In this document: in pieces, positions 1-30,125 of the stretch
Layout of the letters: every line of letters begins with the position of its first letter
Numbering within the stretch: position 1 is the first letter of the stretch
Assembly: GCA_945859605.1 (NCBI GenBank)
Contig: OX243822.1
Span: 3,291,879 to 3,355,878 of the forward strand
Length of the DNA stretch: 64,000 nucleotides
Source: Lumbricus rubellus
Taxonomy: Eukaryota; Annelida; Clitellata; Crassiclitellata; Lumbricidae
Reading direction: 5' to 3'
The notes under the pieces: model-generated
Told to the model about the DNA's origin: nothing
Databases searched by the model: none
Seen by the model: only the letters and a program-made list of their open reading frames with translations
Program-made: the position numbers and the translations under genes

Positions 1-1217
1 GCGATTCTCTTATAATTATAATACACGGGGGCAGCCTACTATTATAATATTGATAATATAATTCTTGCCGTCAAACGCACTGAAAGACCCGTCAATTTAA
101 TACACGTAGCAATATTTAATAATACGCAGCGATACGCAGCCTAACATTTGGACGCACGCACACGTAGGACTTGTTGACAGAGATCAACAAGTCCACGTAA
201 CCTTGAATTTCCCCCGCGCTTGAATATATCGGAACGAGGCTTCATGTTAATTTCTATAGGCTTTTAACATGGGCACGTGACGTCTGCTCCAGAGCGAGGC
301 CCATGTTAATTTTTCCTATATCTTAATGCTAAGCTGGAAAAACCCCGCTATACTCTTAACATGGCCATGCAATTAAAATCAGACATAGGCTTCCTATCTA
401 CGTGTCCATGTTTCTTTGTTCGGAACTAAATTCAGCGCGAGTTTGGCGTCCCTCGTGGCCAATTGCCGTATTTTTAGTCAGAGTGAAATTGGTCGGCGAA
501 GGGATCGGTCGCATTCAGAAGAGCTCTGGTGTGAGCGTCTTAGTTAATAAAGTTTAGGCTGAAATTCGATTTAGATTGAAATAATTAAAGTGATAGAATA
601 TCGGCAATACGGAGTTTAAAAGGAAAAGCGTGGATAAATATCGCGGAGGAATATTTCTGTTATTAAATCAGTGGATATACCTGGAATAAACTACTTAAAC
701 TCTGAGGAGGAGTTTCATAAGTGTTTTTGGTTGTTCGATGCTTTCCGTTGTTACGAGAAAATCAGTGGATCTATTCGGAATATATCTAACGCCAAAAATA
801 AATCGAAATTACGAAGAAGTCGCGAAATCGCATAAATCTTGGAATCGGAATAAATCGATTGCGTGGATTTTACTTGCGTGTCGGTCACTCAGCCTACCCT
901 CGCCCTTCGCCACGACCTGTCCGACTTTGAGGTATGTCACTGTAGGGTAGACCTAAATTAAGGGAATAATGGGAGCAAATCGCCATTAGCCAATATTATT
1001 ATCATATGTTAACTTTCAACTTCCAAGTTGCGATAAGTAGTAGAGGTTACGTAAAGTAAGAAACATATACGGAAAAGTGTCCGTATTCTTATTCGTTCAT
1101 AGATAATCTTCATAGATAAGAATTGTACGTTCCGGTTCAGTGGTAATAAAATAATAATAACCAAATCTTCTTCGGTAGTTAATAGCGTCTAGTCGTTAAT
1201 CGTAATTACTCGCATTT

Positions 1218-4200
1218 ATGGAGCGCACTTCTAGAGACGAGGACGAGCAGTCGCTCGGGTCCAACCGGTCACGTGTGAGTGCCGTATTGGAATTAATGAT
1301 GGACCGACTAGACAATAAGTTTGCAAGTATGCACGCCCACGTAGGAGAAGTCACTTCACAGGTGGGTGAAATACGCTCCCAAGTAGGAGAGGCGTTGATT
1401 CGCCTAAATAGACTCGAAGAGTCCCCTTCTGCCAACTTCGCTGTAGGGCAGACGGACCCAAACTATGACATGACGATAGTTACGGCCAGACCGGCCGTCG
1501 CGGACAGCCACTCGAGCCCATCCATGGTACCTGAGAGAGCGGACGAACCTAGCGTTAAGAGAAGCCAAAGGCTAAAGGATCAGCCTAGGTTGAATTATCG
1601 AGACTTCGATAGAACTGGAGATCGGTCAGGCGAGACCTGGCAGCCTAATACAACAGTGCGAGACCACTTCCTATCGACGGACTTGGACCCTGACGCCCTA
1701 CAGCGAGGCGACAGTCCCTCGAGGGCGGAGGTACAAGTTACTTCCGGCCTGACGAGGGGGAAAATCGCTACAATTGGTTCCAGAAGTGTCGGGTACAGGT
1801 TAGGGTCTAACCCCTCGATAGGAGTAGGCACCGATAGGATTGAACTGGATGATAGCGTGGCTTCAGATGCCGCTAACCAGAGCAATCACGAGTATTTTCA
1901 AGTTGATGTAGATGAAGAAATAAGGGATGAAAATGTAAATGCCCCGTATGAAAGAAGTAAGATAGATAAACAATATGAAACTCGCAACTTGGAACTTCTA
2001 AATTGGGGGCGAAAAGAAGAAAATTTAAGCCAACCGACCCGAAATACAAACCCATGGGAGGGGGTTGGCCTGTCTAACGGTGGCACCAGCATCCGACCAC
2101 TCACGACGGCTGGTCCTGTCACACGACTACCTGCCACGTCGGCCCTGCGACCAACCAACACATCGGTTGTACGTTCGTTGTCGGAACCACGAGCTTCTCA
2201 TCGCGTGGCTGACCAATACCGGCACGTCGAAGCTGATCAACGGAATGTGGCTAACACACAAGCCATGCGAAGCCGATACGAGGCTACGACAGGTCTTACG
2301 ACGACGAGGCCTGGTACGCCGATCCCCATCTTCGCTCCCAACGGCCACCCATTCCCTCCCGCGCCGAACAGACTCGTGGATTTTCCTCGATCGCACGCAC
2401 TTCCGCACCTCTCCGCGTACGATCCTGTCCTCACCTACGACCACGCCATCGCGTCAACGGTCCAGTGGATACCTGTCGCAGTTTCTACGCCAGGAATGCC
2501 GAAAGAGTGTGCTGGAGGATATGCCGACGATTGGAGGAGAAACAGCGAGGCCATGCGACGAAGAGACGGTCTCGGTGCGCAGATGTTTGGTCACGATAGG
2601 AACGACGCGTATGCCATGCATCAGAACTTACCGCCGCCGATGCTGAGCGACGAATACCGACGCGACTTCTACAACAGATCGAAACCGGTCGACCTGAAAA
2701 CCGAAGAGACCTGGCCAACAACGAAGATGCACGAAAAGCTATCGTTCGTGCCGACGACTTCCGTTGCTACGCAGACGGTGGGTCACGTGGTCGTATCGAC
2801 ACAAGCAGAGACTGGTGAAGCTGGTACAGCGACGGAATGTACGAAGCCGTCGTCTAATACAAAGGACGTTAATGAACCGTCCGTGTCATCGACGAACCGG
2901 CCGAAACCGAACCAATGGATTAAGCTCGAACGTTACAGTGGAAAAACGGAAGTTGAAGCTTTCTTGCAGAAGTTCGTGATCTGCGCGACGAACAATGGTT
3001 GGACTGACGTGGAGCGGTTGAACCACCTGAGGTGCGCTTTGGTTGAACCGGCGGATCAGTTGCTGTGGGAAGCGGGTACACAGACTGTGGAGACTTGGTC
3101 AGATCTGGTGCAACGATTACGGGATAGATACGGAGGCGCCAACCAGGCCGCCTTGTATCAGACGCAGCTGAGTACGAGACGGCAACGGGAAGGAGAAGAA
3201 CTTAGCTCGCTGGTGCAGGACATTCGTCGGCTGATGACTCTCGCGTATCCTGGACCCGTGTCAGCCCATAGTGAGTCAATCGCCATACGTGCGTTTGCGG
3301 ACGCTTTGACCGACAAAAGAATCGCACGGAAGCTACGTGAGAATGATCTCGCCTCGCTGGACAAAGCGTATCAATTAGCCATGAGACTGGACGGTGTCCG
3401 CAAAGCGGATACGGATAACGAGGGATCTAACGAACGACGTTACGGACGGGTCAAGATGGTGAAGGAAGCCGAACGAACAACGGATATCGATCTTCGACAG
3501 ATCAAAAACCAGATGGACAGTATTCAAGCACAGATTAGACGTCAAGAAGAAATCTCGACAAATGTCCAAGCGCAGATAGCCCTGTTCTCTGGTCATCCAA
3601 CGCAGACGCCTTCCAGCTACCCTACGCATGAGCCCGTAGTTTACTTCGGAGGAGAACAACAACAACAAAACACGAGCGGGTATCGAAGAAGACCCGACCC
3701 CCGCTGGAGTAGGAACGGCGTCCGACCTCCTCGACGTTGCTTCGAATGTCAGGCCCTGGACCACCTCGCACGTGACTGCCCATCTCGACAACAGAGGGAG
3801 GCGGAACCACAAGGAGCGACGGGTTATCCAGCGGACCACAGGAACAGCTGCATTCCAGGGACGAACGTCGCATACCTACCGTTGCTGGTGAGAGGAAAGA
3901 GGACGCGTGCGCTGCTCGACTCTGGAAGCTCGGTGTCTCTCGTTCCGGCTTCCGAAGTAGCACTGGAAGAGATACGGCCAACTGACAAGACTGTGAGTGC
4001 TGCTAATGGCACGGCTATTCCGATCATCGGAGAAGCCATCCTGCCGTGTCAGGCCGGCGGGATCATCTTTGCGGAAACATTCTTGGTCTCTCCGCAAGTA
4101 GACGAACTGATCCTAGGAATGAACTGGCTTGACAGATACGAAGTCGAATGGAAGATAAGGGAAGACGTCATCATCTTTGGTGGAAGACGCTTGCCGGTAT

Positions 4201-4751
4201 ACCGAACGTCCACCGCCGCGGTCTGTGGCATGATTATTGAACAATGGAAGCAGGTCGACTTGGTCCGACCACATGCAGAGGGCCAACGCGTGACGGAAGT
4301 ACCAACTACTTCTGCCACGTCGGTTGATGATCAAATCGACGTGACGTCTGGATTGGCTGATCGAATCCGCCTCGCTTGCATTGCTCGGAGGGCCAGGAAA
4401 GAACTGCCGAGTACTTATCTCTGTCACCTGTGTTTCCAGAAAGGTCATAGCATCAAGGACTGTAGGATGGCTCGAACCAAGGATCAAGGATGGACACCGT
4501 ATCAAGGAAAGAAAAGATGCGTTGGGGAATTCAAGTGCATCCGATGCAACCGGAAATGGATGTCCGGCAACAGCTGGGCTAACGTGGGACAAGACTGTCT
4601 CCAGTGCAAGGTGAATGTCTATCCGTACCGACAGCATCCCCTCGGGAAGTTGGTGGACTTGGATCTGAAGGAAAAGAGCAAAGTGCATCCGCAGCATCTT
4701 TGTGGGAGATGCAAGCAATTGGGCTTTTACTGTCGAGACGTTATAAAGTAG
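1218..4751 (+). CDS. Gag-protease polyprotein fused to a ZCCHC24-like zinc-finger domain
   Basis: An intact 1177-aa ORF. Residues about 1-75 include a heptad-rich, coiled-coil-like stretch. About 560-735 is a Retrotrans_gag/capsid-type region (begins NQWIKLERYSG; later LWEAG and RLRDRYGG). A CX2CX4HX4C knuckle lies at 841-854 (CFECQALDHLARDC). A retropepsin-like domain has LLDSGSS with catalytic Asp 901 and an ILGMNWL motif from 965. A second CX2CX4HX4C knuckle is at 1069-1082 (CHLCFQKGHSIKDC). It is followed by TPYQGKKRC, RKWMSGNSWAN and HPQHLCGRCK to the end, a 3CxxC zinc finger. Knuckle plus 3CxxC in this order and spacing is the arrangement of cellular ZCCHC24 (the 3CxxC domain is also found in ZAR1). 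It may help package RNA or bind host RNA; that is inference. No RT, RNase H or integrase follows the stop at 4749-4751. Confidence 0.85.
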   Translation: MERTSRDEDEQSLGSNRSRVSAVLELMMDRLDNKFASMHAHVGEVTSQVGEIRSQVGEALIRLNRLEESPSANFAVGQTDPNYDMTIVTARPAVADSHSSPSMVPERADEPSVKRSQRLKDQPRLNYRDFDRTGDRSGETWQPNTTVRDHFLSTDLDPDALQRGDSPSRAEVQVTSGLTRGKIATIGSRSVGYRLGSNPSIGVGTDRIELDDSVASDAANQSNHEYFQVDVDEEIRDENVNAPYERSKIDKQYETRNLELLNWGRKEENLSQPTRNTNPWEGVGLSNGGTSIRPLTTAGPVTRLPATSALRPTNTSVVRSLSEPRASHRVADQYRHVEADQRNVANTQAMRSRYEATTGLTTTRPGTPIPIFAPNGHPFPPAPNRLVDFPRSHALPHLSAYDPVLTYDHAIASTVQWIPVAVSTPGMPKECAGGYADDWRRNSEAMRRRDGLGAQMFGHDRNDAYAMHQNLPPPMLSDEYRRDFYNRSKPVDLKTEETWPTTKMHEKLSFVPTTSVATQTVGHVVVSTQAETGEAGTATECTKPSSNTKDVNEPSVSSTNRPKPNQWIKLERYSGKTEVEAFLQKFVICATNNGWTDVERLNHLRCALVEPADQLLWEAGTQTVETWSDLVQRLRDRYGGANQAALYQTQLSTRRQREGEELSSLVQDIRRLMTLAYPGPVSAHSESIAIRAFADALTDKRIARKLRENDLASLDKAYQLAMRLDGVRKADTDNEGSNERRYGRVKMVKEAERTTDIDLRQIKNQMDSIQAQIRRQEEISTNVQAQIALFSGHPTQTPSSYPTHEPVVYFGGEQQQQNTSGYRRRPDPRWSRNGVRPPRRCFECQALDHLARDCPSRQQREAEPQGATGYPADHRNSCIPGTNVAYLPLLVRGKRTRALLDSGSSVSLVPASEVALEEIRPTDKTVSAANGTAIPIIGEAILPCQAGGIIFAETFLVSPQVDELILGMNWLDRYEVEWKIREDVIIFGGRRLPVYRTSTAAVCGMIIEQWKQVDLVRPHAEGQRVTEVPTTSATSVDDQIDVTSGLADRIRLACIARRARKELPSTYLCHLCFQKGHSIKDCRMARTKDQGWTPYQGKKRCVGEFKCIRCNRKWMSGNSWANVGQDCLQCKVNVYPYRQHPLGKLVDLDLKEKSKVHPQHLCGRCKQLGFYCRDVIK

Positions 4752-5970
4752 ACGCCCTGCGCTTAAGTTTGGGTTGTAACGGTGTCTAGATAAGAGTTAT
4801 AGCGGTTTTGTTTGATTGTGATGAAGTTGAACTCAAGGAGAAAGGTCTTCTCTATAATTTGCCGTAGATAAGAGGATGAGCAGTAAAGTGATTAAAGTCC
4901 TGCGTTATCTAGCCATATAAGATTAACAGTTGAAGTGCTAAGGCGACTGATTGTTTCATTTAAAATGCATACTGCATAGTTAGTTTCTTTATTATTGCTG
5001 TGTGCTATGATTACAGTTAAAGCAATAAGATGTTGTGGTTTTACTGAAACGAGATAATGACATCTTATTAATGTTTGCGTTGCCTTAAAGATTGCTGTTT
5101 GACTATAGGGTTTCGGTAAAGCTGATTGCGTTAGTTGGAATGCATAACCTTGTAGCCGATAGGTGCTACAATTTATGCTGAGGCTAAGAGACATTGTATG
5201 CGGTATGTATTATTGGTTGCGTAGCCTTAAGGATTGATGTTTGGCTATTGTCTTCCGTAAAGTTGATTGCGTTAGGTAGAATGCATAACTTTACATTCTA
5301 GACGCGTGCTATGATTTATGCTGACGAGATGAAATATCGTGTGCGAGTAATAACGGCATTTCCTGAATATTTGAGCTGCCTTAGTGATCGTTGCTCTGTT
5401 ATTGAATCCTATGATGCTTTGGTTAAAAATCTCATGACATGCATGGATGAACTTTGTAATAGCTGGTGCTATATTGGTCTAATAGAGATTATTGATGAAC
5501 ATTAGTAGATTTTAGCATTGTAGCATAGTATGGCAATAAATAGTAAGCGTCCATTTGTTAAATAGGCTGGTGCACTGCAGTTTGCTGAGGTATAGGACAT
5601 TGGTCTTGAAGTATTACGGTAGACTAGAGGGGTTTTTGTATGGCCTGCTTGTAATGAAGCCTGGGGCACAGCCCGGTAATCTAGTGATTCCTCGTATACT
5701 GTGGGATGACTGTTGAGTCATGGTCTTTAGTGCGTAGACCCGTAGAATTTAGCCATGTGTATACGGTGTGTTAAGACAATGTACTTATGATCAGAACTGT
5801 TTAGATGTTGCTGCCTATATCTGACATTGGATCGCCTTTAATATTGCTTGCTGTTGTTTCGGCATTATCACTATGTGATGCTATGAATAATCAGAATGTG
5901 TTGAAAGATGCCTTTCAAAAGCTCTTCTCCCAGTTGAAGAACTTTTGAAAGAAGAGAGGTTGGTGGGCAT
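4752..5970 (+). other. Non-coding 3' internal region of the retroelement
   Basis: About 1.2 kb with no ORF over 100 codons on either strand and no pol motif. It contains a diverged tandem duplication of about 142 bp: the block from about 5076 (TGCGTTGCCTTAAAGATTG) recurs from about 5218 (TGCGTAGCCTTAAGGATTG), both ending near ATTTATGCTGA. A weaker third trace lies upstream near 5000. It ends in a purine-rich stretch near 5947-5968, just before the proposed LTR start. It could be degenerate former coding sequence or structural RNA needed for packaging; the sequence does not decide. Confidence 0.5.
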
Positions 5971-7793
5971 TGTGACGAATGTCAATTTTAAGGTTTAATT
6001 TCTGATTATTATGCAACTAATGGCGATTCTCTTATAATTATAATACACGGGGGCAGCCTACTATTATAATATTGATAATATAATTCTTGCCGTCAAACGC
6101 ACTGAAAGACCCGTCAATTTAATACACGTAGCAATATTTAATAATACGCAGCGATACGCAGCCTAACATTTGGACGCACGCACACGTAGGACTTGTTGAC
6201 AGAGATCAACAAGTCCACGTAACCTTGAATTTCCCCCGCGCTTGAATATATCGGAACGAGGCTTCATGTTAATTTCTATAGGCTTTTAACATGGGCACGT
6301 GACGTCTGCTCCAGAGCGAGGCCCATGTTAATTTTTCCTATATCTTAATGCTAAGCTGGAAAAACCCCGCTATACTCTTAACATGGCCATGCAATTAAAA
6401 TCAGACATAGGCTTCCTATCTACGTGTCCATGTTTCTTTGTTCGGAACTAAATTCAGCGCGAGTTTGGCGTCCCTCGTGGCCAATTGCCGTATTTTTAGT
6501 CAGAGTGAAATTGGTCGGCGAAGGGATCGGTCGCATTCAGAAGAGCTCTGGTGTGAGCGTCTTAGTTAATAAAGTTTAGGCTGAAATTCGATTTAGATTG
6601 AAATAATTAAAGTGATAGAATATCGGCAATACGGAGTTTAAAAGGAAAAGCGTGGATAAATATCGCGGAGGAATATTTCTGTTATTAAATCAGTGGATAT
6701 ACCTGGAATAAACTACTTAAACTCTGAGGAGGAGTTTCATAAGTGTTTTTGGTTGTTCGATGCTTTCCGTTGTTACGAGAAAATCAGTGGATCTATTCGG
6801 AATATATCTAACGCCAAAAATAAATCGAAATTACGAAGAAGTCGCGAAATCGCATAAATCTTGGAATCGGAATAAATCGATTGCGTGGATTTTACTTGCG
6901 TGTCGGTCACTCAGCCTACCCTCGCCCTTCGCCACGACCTGTCCGACTTTGAGGTATGTCACTGTAGGGTAGACCTAAATTAAGGGAATAATGGGAGCAA
7001 ATCGCCATTAGCCAATATTATTATCATATGTTAACTTTCAACTTCCAAGTTGCGATAAGTAGTAGAGGTTACGTAAAGTAAGAAACATATACGGAAAAGT
7101 GTCCGTATTCTTATTCGTTCATAGATAATCTTCATAGATAAGAATTGTACGTTCCGGTTCAGTGGTAATAAAATAATAATAACCAAATCTTCTTCGGTAG
7201 TTAATAGCGTCTAGTCGTTAATCGTAATTACTCGCATTTATGGAGCGCACTTCTAGAGACGAGGACGAGCAGTCGCTCGGGTCCAACCGGTCACGTGTGA
7301 GTGCCGTATTGGAATTAATGATGGACCGACTAGACAATAAGTTTGCAAGTATGCACGCCCACGTAGGAGAAGTCACTTCACAGGTGGGTGAAATACGCTC
7401 CCAAGTAGGAGAGGCGTTGATTCGCCTAAATAGACTCGAAGAGTCCCCTTCTGCCAACTTCGCTGTAGGGCAGACGGACCCAAACTATGACATGACGATA
7501 GTTACGGCCAGACCGGCCGTCGCGGACAGCCACTCGAGCCCATCCATGGTACCTGAGAGAGCGGACGAACCTAGCGTTAAGAGAAGCCAAAGGCTAAAGG
7601 ATCAGCCTAGGTTGAATTATCGAGACTTCGATAGAACTGGAGATCGGTCAGGCGAGACCTGGCAGCCTAATACAACAGTGCGAGACCACTTCCTATCGAC
7701 GGACTTGGACCCTGACGCCCTACAGCGAGGCGACAGTCCCTCGAGGGCGGAGGTACAAGTTACTTCCGGCCTGACGAGGGGGAAAATCGCTAC

Positions 7794-7794
<1 letters not shown>
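5971..7794 (+). mobile_element. Second, truncated copy of the same LTR retrotransposon
   Basis: Positions 6023-7794 match 1-1772 with no difference I could find by eye, and the proposed LTR start is at 5971. The copy holds the LTR, the leader and the first 185 codons of gag. It stops at ...ATCGCTACA, where copy 1 continues ATTGG and this copy enters (TATG)n. The arrangement LTR-internal-LTR-internal fits a tandem insertion or LTR-mediated recombination. An assembly collapse or misjoin at the microsatellite is also possible. Confidence 0.75.
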
Positions 7795-27563: not shown

Positions 27564-30125
27564 TCAATCATTTTCACATGAAATGCAGATGAAAGTGTCT
27601 GGTCCTTCTTCTTCCAAACCCTGGCATGCATTGTGATACCATTTTTGACATTCCTGACACTGTGTCCAGGCTACCGTATCTGGATCGTCACAACATCGGA
27701 TGGAGCAGGTGGCACAAGGAGTCATGTCCACTTTCCTATTGTACCTTTCAGAAGTTTTTTCAGTGTTTTTCTTTTTCTGTGATTGACCCACTCGTCTTGG
27801 TTTTGGATGTTTTGTTGTCTTGGGGGCAGAATGCTTTTTCTGCAATTCTTTCTCCTTATTTTTCTCCATGTTTTCCTGAATTCTTTTTGTCCTTGCTTCT
27901 TGCTTAGCCTTTTTCTTTGCATCACGATCAAGCCTCTCCTGTACATCCTTGAGTTTTGCCTCATGAGCTTCCTTGGATGTCAGCAGAAAAAATTTCTGTT
28001 TCTTTGCTCTTTTCTGCTTACGCTCGACTGGTGTTGGATAAGGGAGCACATCAGAATCAGGATCACCAGGGTATGAACTGTTTCCAAAACTATACTTCGG
28101 TGTGCTGCTTTTGATCACAGCTTGATCTGTGTTGATTTCATTTGTCTCGCCTGAACAATGCGGTAATAGTTCTGTCACTGGCAGCTGCTCGACCAACAGC
28201 TCTTTAGTTTGTGCAAGAGGCAGAGGTGCAAGCTGTAAGTCTGCAACAGACGTCCCTGCACTAGACAAGTTTGCATCTGGCTCAATCAACAGATCCAGAT
28301 CCAAAACACTGTTCAAACTTATATCCTGAATATTACTAAAGGATACATCAGGGTCACAAGCCATAGCTGATTCGTCGTTAGCAGATTCTGGTATAGTCTT
28401 GGATAAGTCCTTCAAGCTTTTCCATGTCATGTAAGCTTCATCTTTTTGAAGGTCATAACCCTTGCTGTAGCAGAATGAGAAGCATTCAAGCTGTGCCGAA
28501 GACAAACCGCTCTCATGAATGGCAAGCGCAATATGAGGTGGAACTGCAGAGCAAGCAGCAGACAAGACGTCAGGATCTTCTGACAAGAAGTCTGACATAT
28601 TGACAACAGCATTCAACTGAGGAATGTCACATGTTGTTGATTGCTTGCTTGAAGTAGCTGTAGTGATGGTGTTGATGCTGTTGTCATCTTCAAGAATGCT
28701 TGTTGTATCACTAGGCCCATTATTGTTCTCCTTGTGTGCATTGGTGATTTTGTCGCCGACAATGCTGTTGTCTGAAATGTTGTTTTTCTGGCCATCACTG
28801 TTCTCATTGTGACTGGTAGTATTGTTGACGTTGTCATCAGCCATATTATTTCTTGAGCCATACAGAAGATTGGTTTGATATGCCTGAAGTGGAATAGCAT
28901 CAGGACAAAATGGAAATATTCCACAGGCTCGAAATCCGGATTGAATGTTGGCAGTAGTCACAGACTCCAGCCATGCTTTATTTAATAATCCGCAAAAGTT
29001 TGTCCGTGATACCAGAGTTCCAGGGAAAGAAGACATTAGAGAATCGCATGCTGAACGATAAGCCATCTTGAACGGTCCAAAAACAGTCCGATCACAAGGC
29101 TGCAACCAATTTGAGGTATGTGCTGGTAGCTCAATGATATGAATGCCATTCTGGATAGCAGAATCAATCAGCTCCATAAAATTATGAGAGTCATGGCCAT
29201 CCAGAATTAGCAGCTGAGGTCGTTCTGTTCCAATATTGGGCAGAAAGGAATTGGTGAACCACAGCAAGGCAATGCCTTGCTTTGTCCAACCACTATCCGA
29301 CCAACTCCAAGTTGTTCCTGTAGGAGCTGTTGCTGTATCAAAACTATTCAGAGACCGTCTTGTTTTGCCTTTCACAATCACATGTGGAGGAAGGGTACAT
29401 CCAGCTGCGTTGACACATCCAATAATGGTGATGGTTTCACGATTTCCACTTGTTCTGCTGTGCAGATACTTGGAACCTTTTGCAGCAACTATCCGGCCTG
29501 GCTTATGATCAAGTTGGACTCCGGTCTCATCCATATTCCATATAGCTTCAGGTTTGACATGGAGGTTATTTGCATCCATGATGCTTTGGAGACAAGCAAA
29601 GTATTTCTGAACTTTTGCATGATCCATGCATTGGTGACGTATGGCAGCAGTACCCTCTGGTTGGCGCAATCTCAATCTTTGATGTCTCTGTTTCAGACTA
29701 CGCCACCACCTCAATGATGGTCGCCCATTCTTGAAAGAGAGCTGATGTTTCTTGGCGAAATCACCTGCATATTGAAGAAATTGCTTTCGCCCAAACCCAA
29801 TGCCCATTGATGCGCGATTGCATGCATAGTCGACAACCTTTTGTTCTTGCTCTAACGACATCAATGTTGGATGACCAGGTTTAGCTCCGACTTCAGTTTT
29901 TCCACTAAGGCGAACTTGGAGTGTGCATCTTGGAACTCCAAATGTTTTACATGCTGCACGCTGTGACATTTGTTTGTTTCGAACAGCTTCAATTGCTGAA
30001 ATCATTGCATTTTCGCTCCACATGCAATGCTGTCCTCGCTTGGGTCGCGCGGTCGACGCTTTAGAATTTTGTTCTTTCCCCTTGTTCAACTTCACCTTGG
30101 CCATAATTCTGCATAATACATACAA
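27564..30125 (-). CDS. Pogo-type transposase with psq HTH, DDE domain and C-terminal PHD finger
   Basis: Intact 853-aa ORF; initiation at Met8 (30104, MAKVKLNK) is also likely. A pipsqueak-type helix-turn-helix lies at about 36-78 (MSQRAACKTFGVPRCTLQ). A CENP-B/Tigger-like linker region spans about 90-165. The DDE_1 catalytic core has D199 (WNMDETG), D309 (LLILDGHDSH) and D345 (LQPCDRTVFG). A long acidic, Ser/Asn-rich linker (about 420-700) is followed by a very basic, Lys-rich segment (about 715-800) and a Cys/His cluster at about 804-850 (CATCSIRCC..., CQECQKWYHNAC, CISC) matching a PHD finger. Such a finger could read histone tails and steer insertion; that is inference. It is uninterrupted and keeps the catalytic residues, so it could be recently active or host-adopted. 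Confidence 0.88.
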   Translation of the reverse strand: MYVLCRIMAKVKLNKGKEQNSKASTARPKRGQHCMWSENAMISAIEAVRNKQMSQRAACKTFGVPRCTLQVRLSGKTEVGAKPGHPTLMSLEQEQKVVDYACNRASMGIGFGRKQFLQYAGDFAKKHQLSFKNGRPSLRWWRSLKQRHQRLRLRQPEGTAAIRHQCMDHAKVQKYFACLQSIMDANNLHVKPEAIWNMDETGVQLDHKPGRIVAAKGSKYLHSRTSGNRETITIIGCVNAAGCTLPPHVIVKGKTRRSLNSFDTATAPTGTTWSWSDSGWTKQGIALLWFTNSFLPNIGTERPQLLILDGHDSHNFMELIDSAIQNGIHIIELPAHTSNWLQPCDRTVFGPFKMAYRSACDSLMSSFPGTLVSRTNFCGLLNKAWLESVTTANIQSGFRACGIFPFCPDAIPLQAYQTNLLYGSRNNMADDNVNNTTSHNENSDGQKNNISDNSIVGDKITNAHKENNNGPSDTTSILEDDNSINTITTATSSKQSTTCDIPQLNAVVNMSDFLSEDPDVLSAACSAVPPHIALAIHESGLSSAQLECFSFCYSKGYDLQKDEAYMTWKSLKDLSKTIPESANDESAMACDPDVSFSNIQDISLNSVLDLDLLIEPDANLSSAGTSVADLQLAPLPLAQTKELLVEQLPVTELLPHCSGETNEINTDQAVIKSSTPKYSFGNSSYPGDPDSDVLPYPTPVERKQKRAKKQKFFLLTSKEAHEAKLKDVQERLDRDAKKKAKQEARTKRIQENMEKNKEKELQKKHSAPKTTKHPKPRRVGQSQKKKNTEKTSERYNRKVDMTPCATCSIRCCDDPDTVAWTQCQECQKWYHNACQGLEEEGPDTFICISCEND

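What the first reader, a model, noticed from the sequence alone, without database searches (positions are those of the whole stretch)
4420..4751. A host ZCCHC24-like zinc-finger module fused to a retrotransposon Gag-protease
The ORF's last about 110 residues carry a second CCHC knuckle and a 3CxxC zinc finger (CHLCFQKGHSIKDC, TPYQGKKRC, RKWMSGNSWAN, HPQHLCGRCK) in the order and spacing of cellular ZCCHC24. Seen: motifs in one uninterrupted frame with Gag and protease. Known: 3CxxC domains of this group (ZAR1, ZCCHC24) are zinc-binding, and ZAR1 binds maternal mRNA. Inferred: the element captured a spliced host gene, perhaps for RNA selection or germline targeting. I know of no described element with this architecture.
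Basis: partly seen in the sequence, partly recalled or inferred. Interest (0 to 1): 0.93.

Follow-up and report, generated by a model that had tools for sequence, protein, structure and literature searches.

The report
Retrotransposon Gag fused to host ZCCHC24
A recently mobile animal retrotransposon has lost its own copying enzymes and carries in their place a piece of a spliced host gene for an RNA-binding-type zinc-finger protein, fused to its particle protein and kept largely intact by selection, so it can be used to ask what a stolen host module does for a jumping gene.

Summary
The 1177-aa ORF (1218-4751, +) is Gag, a CCHC knuckle and an aspartic protease, followed in frame by zf-CCHC_2, Zn_ribbon_3CxxC_2 and ZCCHC24_C in ZCCHC24 order. 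It is no assembly artefact: the genome holds 11 further full-length matches, 9 of them complete LTR elements with 4-5 bp target duplications and LTR pairs differing by 0-2 substitutions. The module aligns to host ZCCHC24-like genes across three exons with both introns missing: a spliced transcript was captured. In the tree all 12 element modules form one clade, on the side of lineage-specific host paralogs. Pol is gone. A sibling in the same genome with RT and RNase H shares the LTR at 98.6%. Nine zinc ligands of CCHC and 3CxxC are intact in 12 of 12 copies; median omega of the module over 45 pairs is 0.36. Best reading: a non-autonomous, helper-dependent Ty3/gypsy-type element using a stolen RNA-binding-type module as a Gag extension. 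The module's role is inferred; the human ZCCHC24 RNA motif is not enriched in the element.

The parts
1..1772 (+). 5' LTR, lacking its first ~52 nt (the sequence before the window reads N)
   Evidence: 0 differences in 1772 to 6023-7794; upstream N in L031
1218..4751 (+). single ORF, 1177 aa: Gag - CCHC - protease - linker - ZCCHC24-like module
1218..1772 (+). first 185 codons of Gag, encoded inside the LTR
   Evidence: ORF start lies inside the repeat in the window and in 9 complete copies
1775..1793 (+). putative primer binding site TGGTTCCAGAAGTGTCGGG, 2 nt after the LTR and inside the ORF
   Evidence: same position in the window and 9 copies, with single-base variants in two, and in the sibling; resemblance to tRNA-Leu is recalled, not tested
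2898..3377 (+). Gag capsid-type region (residues ~561-720)
   Evidence: homology to the Gag of P0003, a Ty3/gypsy-type polyprotein; Retrotrans_gag weak
3735..3785 (+). Gag CCHC zinc knuckle (residues 840-856)
3885..4136 (+). aspartic protease (residues 890-973, LLDSGSS)
   Evidence: just below the family cut-off
4335..4748 (+). captured host ZCCHC24-like cDNA: part of exon A (to ~4469), exon B (~4470-4634), exon C (~4635-4748), introns absent
4407..4469 (+). zf-CCHC_2 knuckle of the captured module (residues 1064-1084)
   Evidence: ligands kept in 12 of 12 copies
4512..4640 (+). 3CxxC zinc ribbon (residues 1099-1141)
   Evidence: ligands kept in 12 of 12 copies
4659..4739 (+). ZCCHC24_C motif (residues 1148-1174), intact in the window copy; its first Cys lost in 8 of 12 copies
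4752..5970 (+). non-coding 3' internal region, 88% identical to that of the sibling element
   Evidence: no pol match
5971..7794 (+). 3' LTR, 1824 bp, TGTGACG...CGCTACA, inserted into a (TATG)n microsatellite
   Evidence: 98.6% identical to the sibling LTR; ends as in the other copies

Best explanation
This is a young, non-autonomous Ty3/gypsy-type LTR retrotransposon in an unnamed animal. Long ago its pol was replaced by the spliced cDNA of a host ZCCHC24-like gene (shown by sequence). It makes one polyprotein: Gag, protease and the CCHC-3CxxC module (inferred from the frame). Particles form with the Gag-Pol of a sibling element that shares its LTRs and Gag start; that sibling supplies RT, RNase H and integrase in trans (inferred; no pol was found in the copies, yet insertions are fresh). 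The captured module stays attached to, or is cleaved from, Gag next to the nucleocapsid knuckle and acts as an extra RNA-binding surface that stabilises or selects the element's own RNA (inferred from what ZCCHC24 does in human cells). My confidence by step: host capture and mobility ~0.95; mobilisation in trans by the sibling or a close relative ~0.85; RNA-directed role of the module ~0.38.
For: Domains in one frame. 10 complete copies on 6 chromosome-scale contigs (window plus 9), each ORF 1159-1195 aa from the first ATG. Target duplications in 9 of 9 copies whose two flanks are readable; LTR pairs with 0 substitutions in 8 of 9 (one of these, L041, with a 6-nt gap) and 2 in the ninth (there L034 is listed with 3 bp because its LTR start was set one base early; it is CATG); window pair 0 of 1772. 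Host exons A, B and C align collinearly with both introns gone. 12 element modules form one clade, support 100/99, and canonical ZCCHC24 splits off at 100/100. P0003 residues 901-1977 give no hit better than E 5.7 in L032-L043 and the window's first 9 kb, while its Gag-protease part hits each of these with E from 3e-99 to 2e-119 (fragment L043: 3e-28). A sibling at C2:23,760-23,769 kb has a 2086-aa open frame with RVT_1 and RNase H; LTR 98.6% identical over 1822 columns, first 308 internal nt 99.7%, 3' internal 88% over 1239. Mosaicism: window against L033, dS 0.011 in residues 185-555 but 0.53 in the module, as expected if RNAs are co-packaged and recombine. CCHC and 3CxxC: 9 ligands kept in 12 of 12. 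Over all 45 pairs of ten ORFs the module has median omega 0.36, maximum 0.66, 23 pairs with p < 0.05 (pairs not independent). Exon-B dS between the window module and host is saturated or at least 1.4: an old, long-kept capture. Human ZCCHC24 binds 3'UTRs and stabilises mRNAs (PMC11624195, abstract and passages read).
Against: UGUWHWWA sites are not enriched in the element's 3' internal region: 1 observed against 1.84 expected in the window, and none of 9 other copies in excess. Constraint is moderate and uneven: CCHC-3CxxC median omega 0.31 with p < 0.05 in only 19 of 45 pairs and one pair above 1; C-terminal part median 0.73 and 0 of 45 significant, its first Cys lost in 8 of 12. No expression, translation or particle data. 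The Gag and protease HMM hits are below their cut-offs. The sibling's integrase core was not read. The fusion was found in this genome only; one search found no other Gag-ZCCHC24 protein (2 hits of 22 candidates, neither with Gag).
Confidence: 0.7

Rival explanations
1. Passive passenger. The capture was an accident that removed pol, as in gag-onc retroviruses; the element spreads because Gag-protease plus LTRs suffice with a helper, and the module contributes nothing.
For: A pol-deleted Gag-protease relative without a host module seems to exist in the same genome: the one ~1250-aa-class frame inspected (L049) runs from the protease end into a tail that by eye resembles the integrase end of P0003, though Pfam finds nothing in it. 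The ZCCHC24_C part decays, and the CCHC-3CxxC constraint is significant in only 19 of 45 pairs.
Against: Nine zinc ligands kept in 12 of 12 copies; module median omega 0.36 with no pair at or above 1 over the whole module; capture old, since exon-B dS to host is saturated or at least 1.4. A passenger of that age should have lost ligands and frame.
Confidence: 0.28
2. Host decoy. The module mimics host ZCCHC24-like proteins and competes for their RNA targets or partners, blunting a germline RNA-control or silencing pathway.
For: The host family is expanded (at least 14 intron-bearing paralogs besides the canonical gene), and the captured copy lies with that expanded group.
Against: Host exon B evolves under strong purifying selection (omega 0.05-0.25 where defined, 10 of 15 host loci compared), with no sign of an arms race in that exon. 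No evidence that the paralogs act against transposons.
Confidence: 0.2
3. Domesticated host gene: a Gag-ZCCHC24 fusion working for the host and copied by ordinary duplication.
For: Intact ORFs under purifying selection.
Against: 9 of 9 readable copies have LTR pairs and their own target duplications in different flanks, with LTRs (nearly) identical within each pair: they arrived by retrotransposition.
Confidence: 0.03
4. Assembly or chimera artefact joining a retrotransposon to a host gene.
For: The window copy abuts an N stretch upstream of its 5' LTR.
Against: The module with Gag-protease in front of it occurs in 12 loci on 8 contigs, with module divergence between them.
Confidence: 0.01

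Closest known systems
ZCCHC24 (zinc finger CCHC domain-containing 24), with ZAR1 as a more distant 3CxxC relative (the ZAR1 link is recalled; PF13695 hit weak, E 0.03)
   Same: CCHC_2, 3CxxC_2 and ZCCHC24_C in the same order and spacing; 9 core zinc ligands identical; 62-73% identity in the 120 listed hits
   Different: Cellular ZCCHC24-type genes of this genome have introns at the two positions where the element has none; the element's module is fused to Gag-protease and groups with lineage-specific paralogs
Ty3/gypsy (Metaviridae) LTR retrotransposons such as P0003 and the sibling at C2:23.76 Mb
   Same: Gag-protease homologous (44% to P0003, 78% to the sibling), TG...CA LTRs, 4-5 bp TSD; Gag start inside the LTR and putative PBS in frame as in the sibling
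   Different: No RT, RNase H or integrase; a host module instead
gag-onc transducing retroviruses and the non-autonomous ETn / autonomous MusD pair (recalled, no call)
   Same: Replication genes replaced, host cDNA in frame with gag (gag-onc) or shared LTRs with a coding-competent helper (ETn/MusD)
   Different: Multi-copy element of an animal genome; module retained long enough for exon-B dS to host to saturate
TR-GAG elements (plants)
   Same: Terminal repeats with Gag and no pol (name taken from the listing; definition recalled)
   Different: Protease kept and a host gene added; animal genome
Gene-capturing LTR elements: maize Bs1, rice and sorghum captured genes (PMC7264820 passages read; PMC3726574 abstract read)
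   Same: Transduction of host gene sequence
   Different: [quoted passage not shown] here 12 loci in diverged lineages keep the same Gag fusion
Bdelloid rotifer LTR elements with captured ORF3s (PMC5408684, abstract read)
   Same: Animal LTR elements with acquired non-retroviral ORFs (DEDDy exonuclease, GDSL esterase)
   Different: Those add an ORF3 to gag and pol; here pol is replaced and the acquired part is fused to Gag

Membership tests
ZCCHC24 protein family (module only) | zf-CCHC_2, 3CxxC_2 and ZCCHC24_C in order | tested here: met
   all three above curated cut-off
ZCCHC24 protein family (module only) | zinc ligands of CCHC and 3CxxC intact | tested here: met
   9 of 9 columns in 12 of 12 copies
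ZCCHC24 protein family (module only) | ZCCHC24_C cysteines intact | tested here: inconclusive
   intact in the window copy; first Cys lost in 8 of 12, second in 3 of 12, third in 1 of 12
ZCCHC24 protein family (module only) | RNA binding | not testable with these tools
   shown for human ZCCHC24 in PMC11624195; motif not enriched in the element
LTR retrotransposon (Ty3/gypsy) | LTR pair with TG..CA ends | tested here: met
LTR retrotransposon (Ty3/gypsy) | target-site duplication of 4-6 bp | tested here: met
   9 of 9 readable copies, 4 bp in 8 and 5 bp in L037; not readable for the window copy
LTR retrotransposon (Ty3/gypsy) | Gag and aspartic protease of Ty3/gypsy type | tested here: met
   44-49% identity to P0003 Gag-protease in the 10 complete copies; P0003 has PR-RT-RH-IN. 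The Pfam Gag and protease hits themselves are below cut-off
LTR retrotransposon (Ty3/gypsy) | own RT, RNase H and integrase (autonomy) | tested here: not met
   no pol hit; so filed as non-autonomous
LTR retrotransposon (Ty3/gypsy) | primer binding site after the 5' LTR | tested here: inconclusive
   conserved TGG-starting stretch 2 nt after the LTR; matching tRNA not identified
Gag-host transduction (gag-onc type) | spliced host sequence in frame with gag, pol lost, RT-bearing relative with shared LTRs | tested here: met
   dependence on that relative itself not tested

The most novel reading that the evidence does not exclude
The captured ZCCHC24-like module is an acquired RNA-selection (or RNA-protection) domain that makes this Gag-protease element a more successful parasite of its Gag-Pol sibling: it diverts shared particles to its own RNA, which would explain why, as far as found, module-bearing loci outnumber Gag-Pol-type loci of the same LTR family 12 to 2 and why the module has been kept through recombination between lineages.
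Probability: 0.31. Interest if true: 0.88.

Novelty: new variant of a known kind. Interest (0 to 1): 0.75.

Why it matters
Host gene capture by LTR elements is known to me mainly as one-off events (gag-onc retroviruses, maize Bs1). Here a host RNA-binding-type module has stayed fused to Gag for long enough that synonymous sites to the donor family are saturated or nearly so, across several lineages that have inserted recently. Donor-type genes, captured copies and a sibling encoding RT sit in one genome, with at least one pol-deleted relative that seems to lack the module, so the question of what a stolen host domain does for a retroelement can be tested directly. Capsid domestication by hosts is well studied; this is the reverse traffic, host domain into Gag.

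Tried and rejected
Human ZCCHC24 motif UGUWHWWA in the element: no enrichment, so no support for that exact target. AlphaFold2 of the module: mean pLDDT 55.9, pTM 0.39, too poor to search; no fold search was made. PDB sequence search with the module: 0 matches at E up to 0.1 (one search was my frame error). Host 3'UTR carried along: no homology beyond the stop codon in the host stretches held. A BLASTP of a module stretch against P0020 and P0021 printed no hit; the query was translated out of frame there, so I rely (73 and 68% identity). Assembly artefact and domesticated gene: rejected by target duplications and independent copies. Host species: not identified; canonical L025 falls outside the 21-row group (82/77) that holds the named sequences, in an open fork, which only hints at a non-bilaterian. 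Literature: nine searches (5.39 million open papers, no bioRxiv) listed 5 to 15 papers each; in those listings and in the five papers I opened (PMC11624195, PMC5408684, PMC12440569, PMC3726574, PMC7264820; abstracts or passages) I saw no Gag-ZCCHC24 or Gag-3CxxC element. One search (ZCCHC24 with retrotransposon) held 5 papers, all listed. Unlisted hits and subscription papers were not seen.

Unanswered for a busy machine: the genome search (same request answered; answered; LTR probe, answered). Never answered: 62 and 63 (internal and 3' region DNA), 64 (GFP family), 87, 91, 94, 95, 98 (end of the 8.8-kb host unit), 89 (tRNA pattern).

Full report
WHAT IS THERE. The ORF at 1218-4751 (+) encodes 1177 residues without interruption. 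Pfam finds a weak Retrotrans_gag and an aspartic protease, both below their cut-offs, and a CCHC knuckle above it; then zf-CCHC_2, Zn_ribbon_3CxxC_2 and ZCCHC24_C above their cut-offs. Gag-protease is related to full Ty3/gypsy-type polyproteins: 17 hits at E <= 0.001 among 7994 scored candidates; P0003 has RT, RNase H and integrase. None of the 17 shows PF17180 in its precomputed domains.

THE ELEMENT AROUND IT. The start of the window repeats at spacing 6022, with 0 differences in 1772 nt. In nine related copies the LTR runs from TGTGACG to CGCTACA, 1716-1947 bp, so the window holds a 5' LTR cut ~52 nt short (upstream reads N), the ORF, a non-coding stretch and a complete 3' LTR, 5971-7794, set in a (TATG)n tract. 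The ORF starts inside the LTR: 185 codons are LTR-encoded, and the putative primer binding site (1775-1793) lies in the reading frame. The sibling has the same layout, so this is probably ancestral to the family and not part of the capture.

COPIES. A search of the 787-Mb genome with window 4200-4748 gave 64 matches. Twelve cover the query at full or nearly full length, the window included; ten of these have open frames of 1169-1213 aa (stop to stop), and L036 and L038 are degraded. Nine of the other eleven are complete: LTR pairs, TSDs of 4 bp (8) or 5 bp (L037), 0 substitutions between LTRs in 8 and 2 in L033 (L041 also has a 6-nt gap). They are therefore recent insertions, although over the query they differ from the window copy by 22-32% in protein sequence. 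L037 has a shifted frame in its last residues. L022/L043 is a further partial copy.

ORIGIN OF THE MODULE. Of the other loci fetched, 15 are host genes in which the module is split by introns. One, L025, is the canonical gene (96% identity to the Saccoglossus protein in exon B); 14 are ZCCHC24-like paralogs (L029 and L030 are overlapping parts of the L015 and L017 genes); further exon matches were not fetched. DNA alignment of the element to these loci runs through part of exon A, exon B and exon C and skips both introns; it starts near window 4335 and stops at the stop codon. The tree of 53 rows (140 columns) puts all 12 element modules in one clade (100/99) and canonical ZCCHC24 behind a 100/100 branch; elements and host paralogs lie on the other side, unresolved among themselves (the bootstrap had not fully settled, and HOST_L023 was left out for lack of exon C). 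The closest protein, P0020 (73%), resembles host gene L015/L029 most (96, 100 and 72% in exons B, C and A). So one capture, from the paralog group, is the simplest reading. Exon-B dS between the window element and ten host loci is saturated in eight and 1.4-1.9 in two, so the capture is old.

POL IS REPLACED, AND A CANDIDATE HELPER EXISTS. P0003 residues 901-1977 give no hit better than E 5.7 in L032-L043 and the window's first 9 kb, and none at E <= 1e-3 in the whole window, whereas its Gag-protease half hits strongly up to about residue 890. The Gag-protease search of the own genome (97 of 1666 candidates scored, 108 matches) found a locus at C2:23.765 Mb with 78% identity and a 2086-aa open frame, one at C4:6.293 Mb (73%, 1829 aa, one TAG), and many mostly at 45-47% with frames of ~2100 or ~1250 aa. 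A 2.1-kb piece of the C2 locus holds the protease end, RVT_1 (E 4.6e-32) and RNase H (E 3.7e-32) in one frame; the end of its ORF is 49% identical over 43 residues to the C-terminal region of P0003; its integrase core was not read. Its LTR is 98.6% identical to the window LTR over 1822 columns, the first 308 internal nt 99.7%, the 3' internal region 88%. The C4 locus was not read. One frame of the ~1250-aa class (L049) runs from the protease end into a tail that by eye resembles P0003's integrase end, but Pfam finds no family in it; the others of that class were not read. A 429-nt LTR probe gives 41 matches: 13 pairs (window, 9 complete copies, L038, and the C2 and C4 siblings), 12 unpaired (one is L036) and 3 weak ones. 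As far as found, module-bearing loci outnumber Gag-Pol-type loci of this LTR family 12 to 2.

SELECTION AND RECOMBINATION. NG86 over ten ORFs: capsid region omega 0.02-0.16 for the listed pairs with dN above 0; module 0.25-0.34 for the window against the other nine. Over all 45 pairs: whole module median 0.36, maximum 0.66, 23 pairs p < 0.05; CCHC-3CxxC median 0.31, 19 pairs p < 0.05, 4 pairs without synonymous change, one pair above 1; C-terminal part median 0.73, none significant, 21 pairs without synonymous change. The pairs are not independent. Nine ligands of CCHC and 3CxxC are kept in 12 of 12; the first ZCCHC24_C cysteine is lost in 8 of 12. The window copy is nearly identical to L033 and L037 over much of Gag (dS 0.011-0.015 in residues 185-555) but far from them in the module (dS 0.53-0.69): lineages have recombined, as expected from template switching between co-packaged RNAs.

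HOW IT MOST LIKELY WORKS. Shown: capture of a spliced host sequence, absence of pol, recent insertion, constraint on two of the three zinc motifs, a sibling with RT and shared LTRs. Inferred: the sibling provides the enzymes; the fused polyprotein joins mixed particles; the module touches RNA. Human ZCCHC24 binds UGUWHWWA in 3'UTRs and stabilises mRNAs (PMC11624195: abstract and passages read). That motif is not enriched in the element (window 3' region 1 against 1.84 expected; 0-1 in 9 other copies), so either the target differs in this lineage or the role is different. ZAR1 and its maternal role are known to me from recall and from the listing.

NOVELTY. Gene transduction by retroelements is known; [quoted passage not shown] A Gag-protease-host fusion that replaces pol, is kept under selection and occurs in many diverged young copies was not seen in the searches listed in Tried and rejected. 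I therefore call it a new variant of a known kind.

Noticed in passing
L013 (C14) and L014 (C18) with flanks L044-L047: Two intron-bearing host ZCCHC24-like paralogs lie in an ~8.8-kb unit, 99.4% identical between chromosomes, with sharp ends inside (TA)n tracts; its only frame over 110 aa is the one with exon A: perhaps a gene carried by a non-autonomous DNA-type or rolling-circle element, or a duplication bounded by microsatellites. Copy number of its ends could not be searched.
   Followed up: partly
host loci L013-L021, L023, L024, L026-L028: Lineage-specific expansion of ZCCHC24-like genes with introns, exon B under purifying selection in the pairs compared.
   Followed up: partly
G000 C2:10101400-10103000 (L049) and other ~1250-aa frames: Gag-protease relatives with shortened frames, some in tandem pairs ~6 kb apart; the one read ends in a tail that by eye resembles an integrase end (no Pfam hit). 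Possibly pol-deleted elements without a host module, a natural comparison.
   Followed up: partly
window 1218-1772 and L050: Gag starts inside the LTR by 185 codons and the putative primer binding site is translated, in element and sibling alike.
   Followed up: partly
window 27564-30125 (-): 853-aa transposase-like ORF (HTH_psq, DDE_1; pogo/Tigger-like by recall) with a weak PHD-type hit at its C-terminal end.
   Followed up: no
P0002 (protein database): A Labeo rohita protein named ZCCHC24 whose domains also include PF13843 (a transposase family, by recall); may be a gene-prediction error.
   Followed up: no
L033 and L037 (C18, ~11.5 kb apart): Two complete module-bearing copies close together, each with its own target duplication; 5 of the 10 complete copies are on C18.
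   Followed up: no
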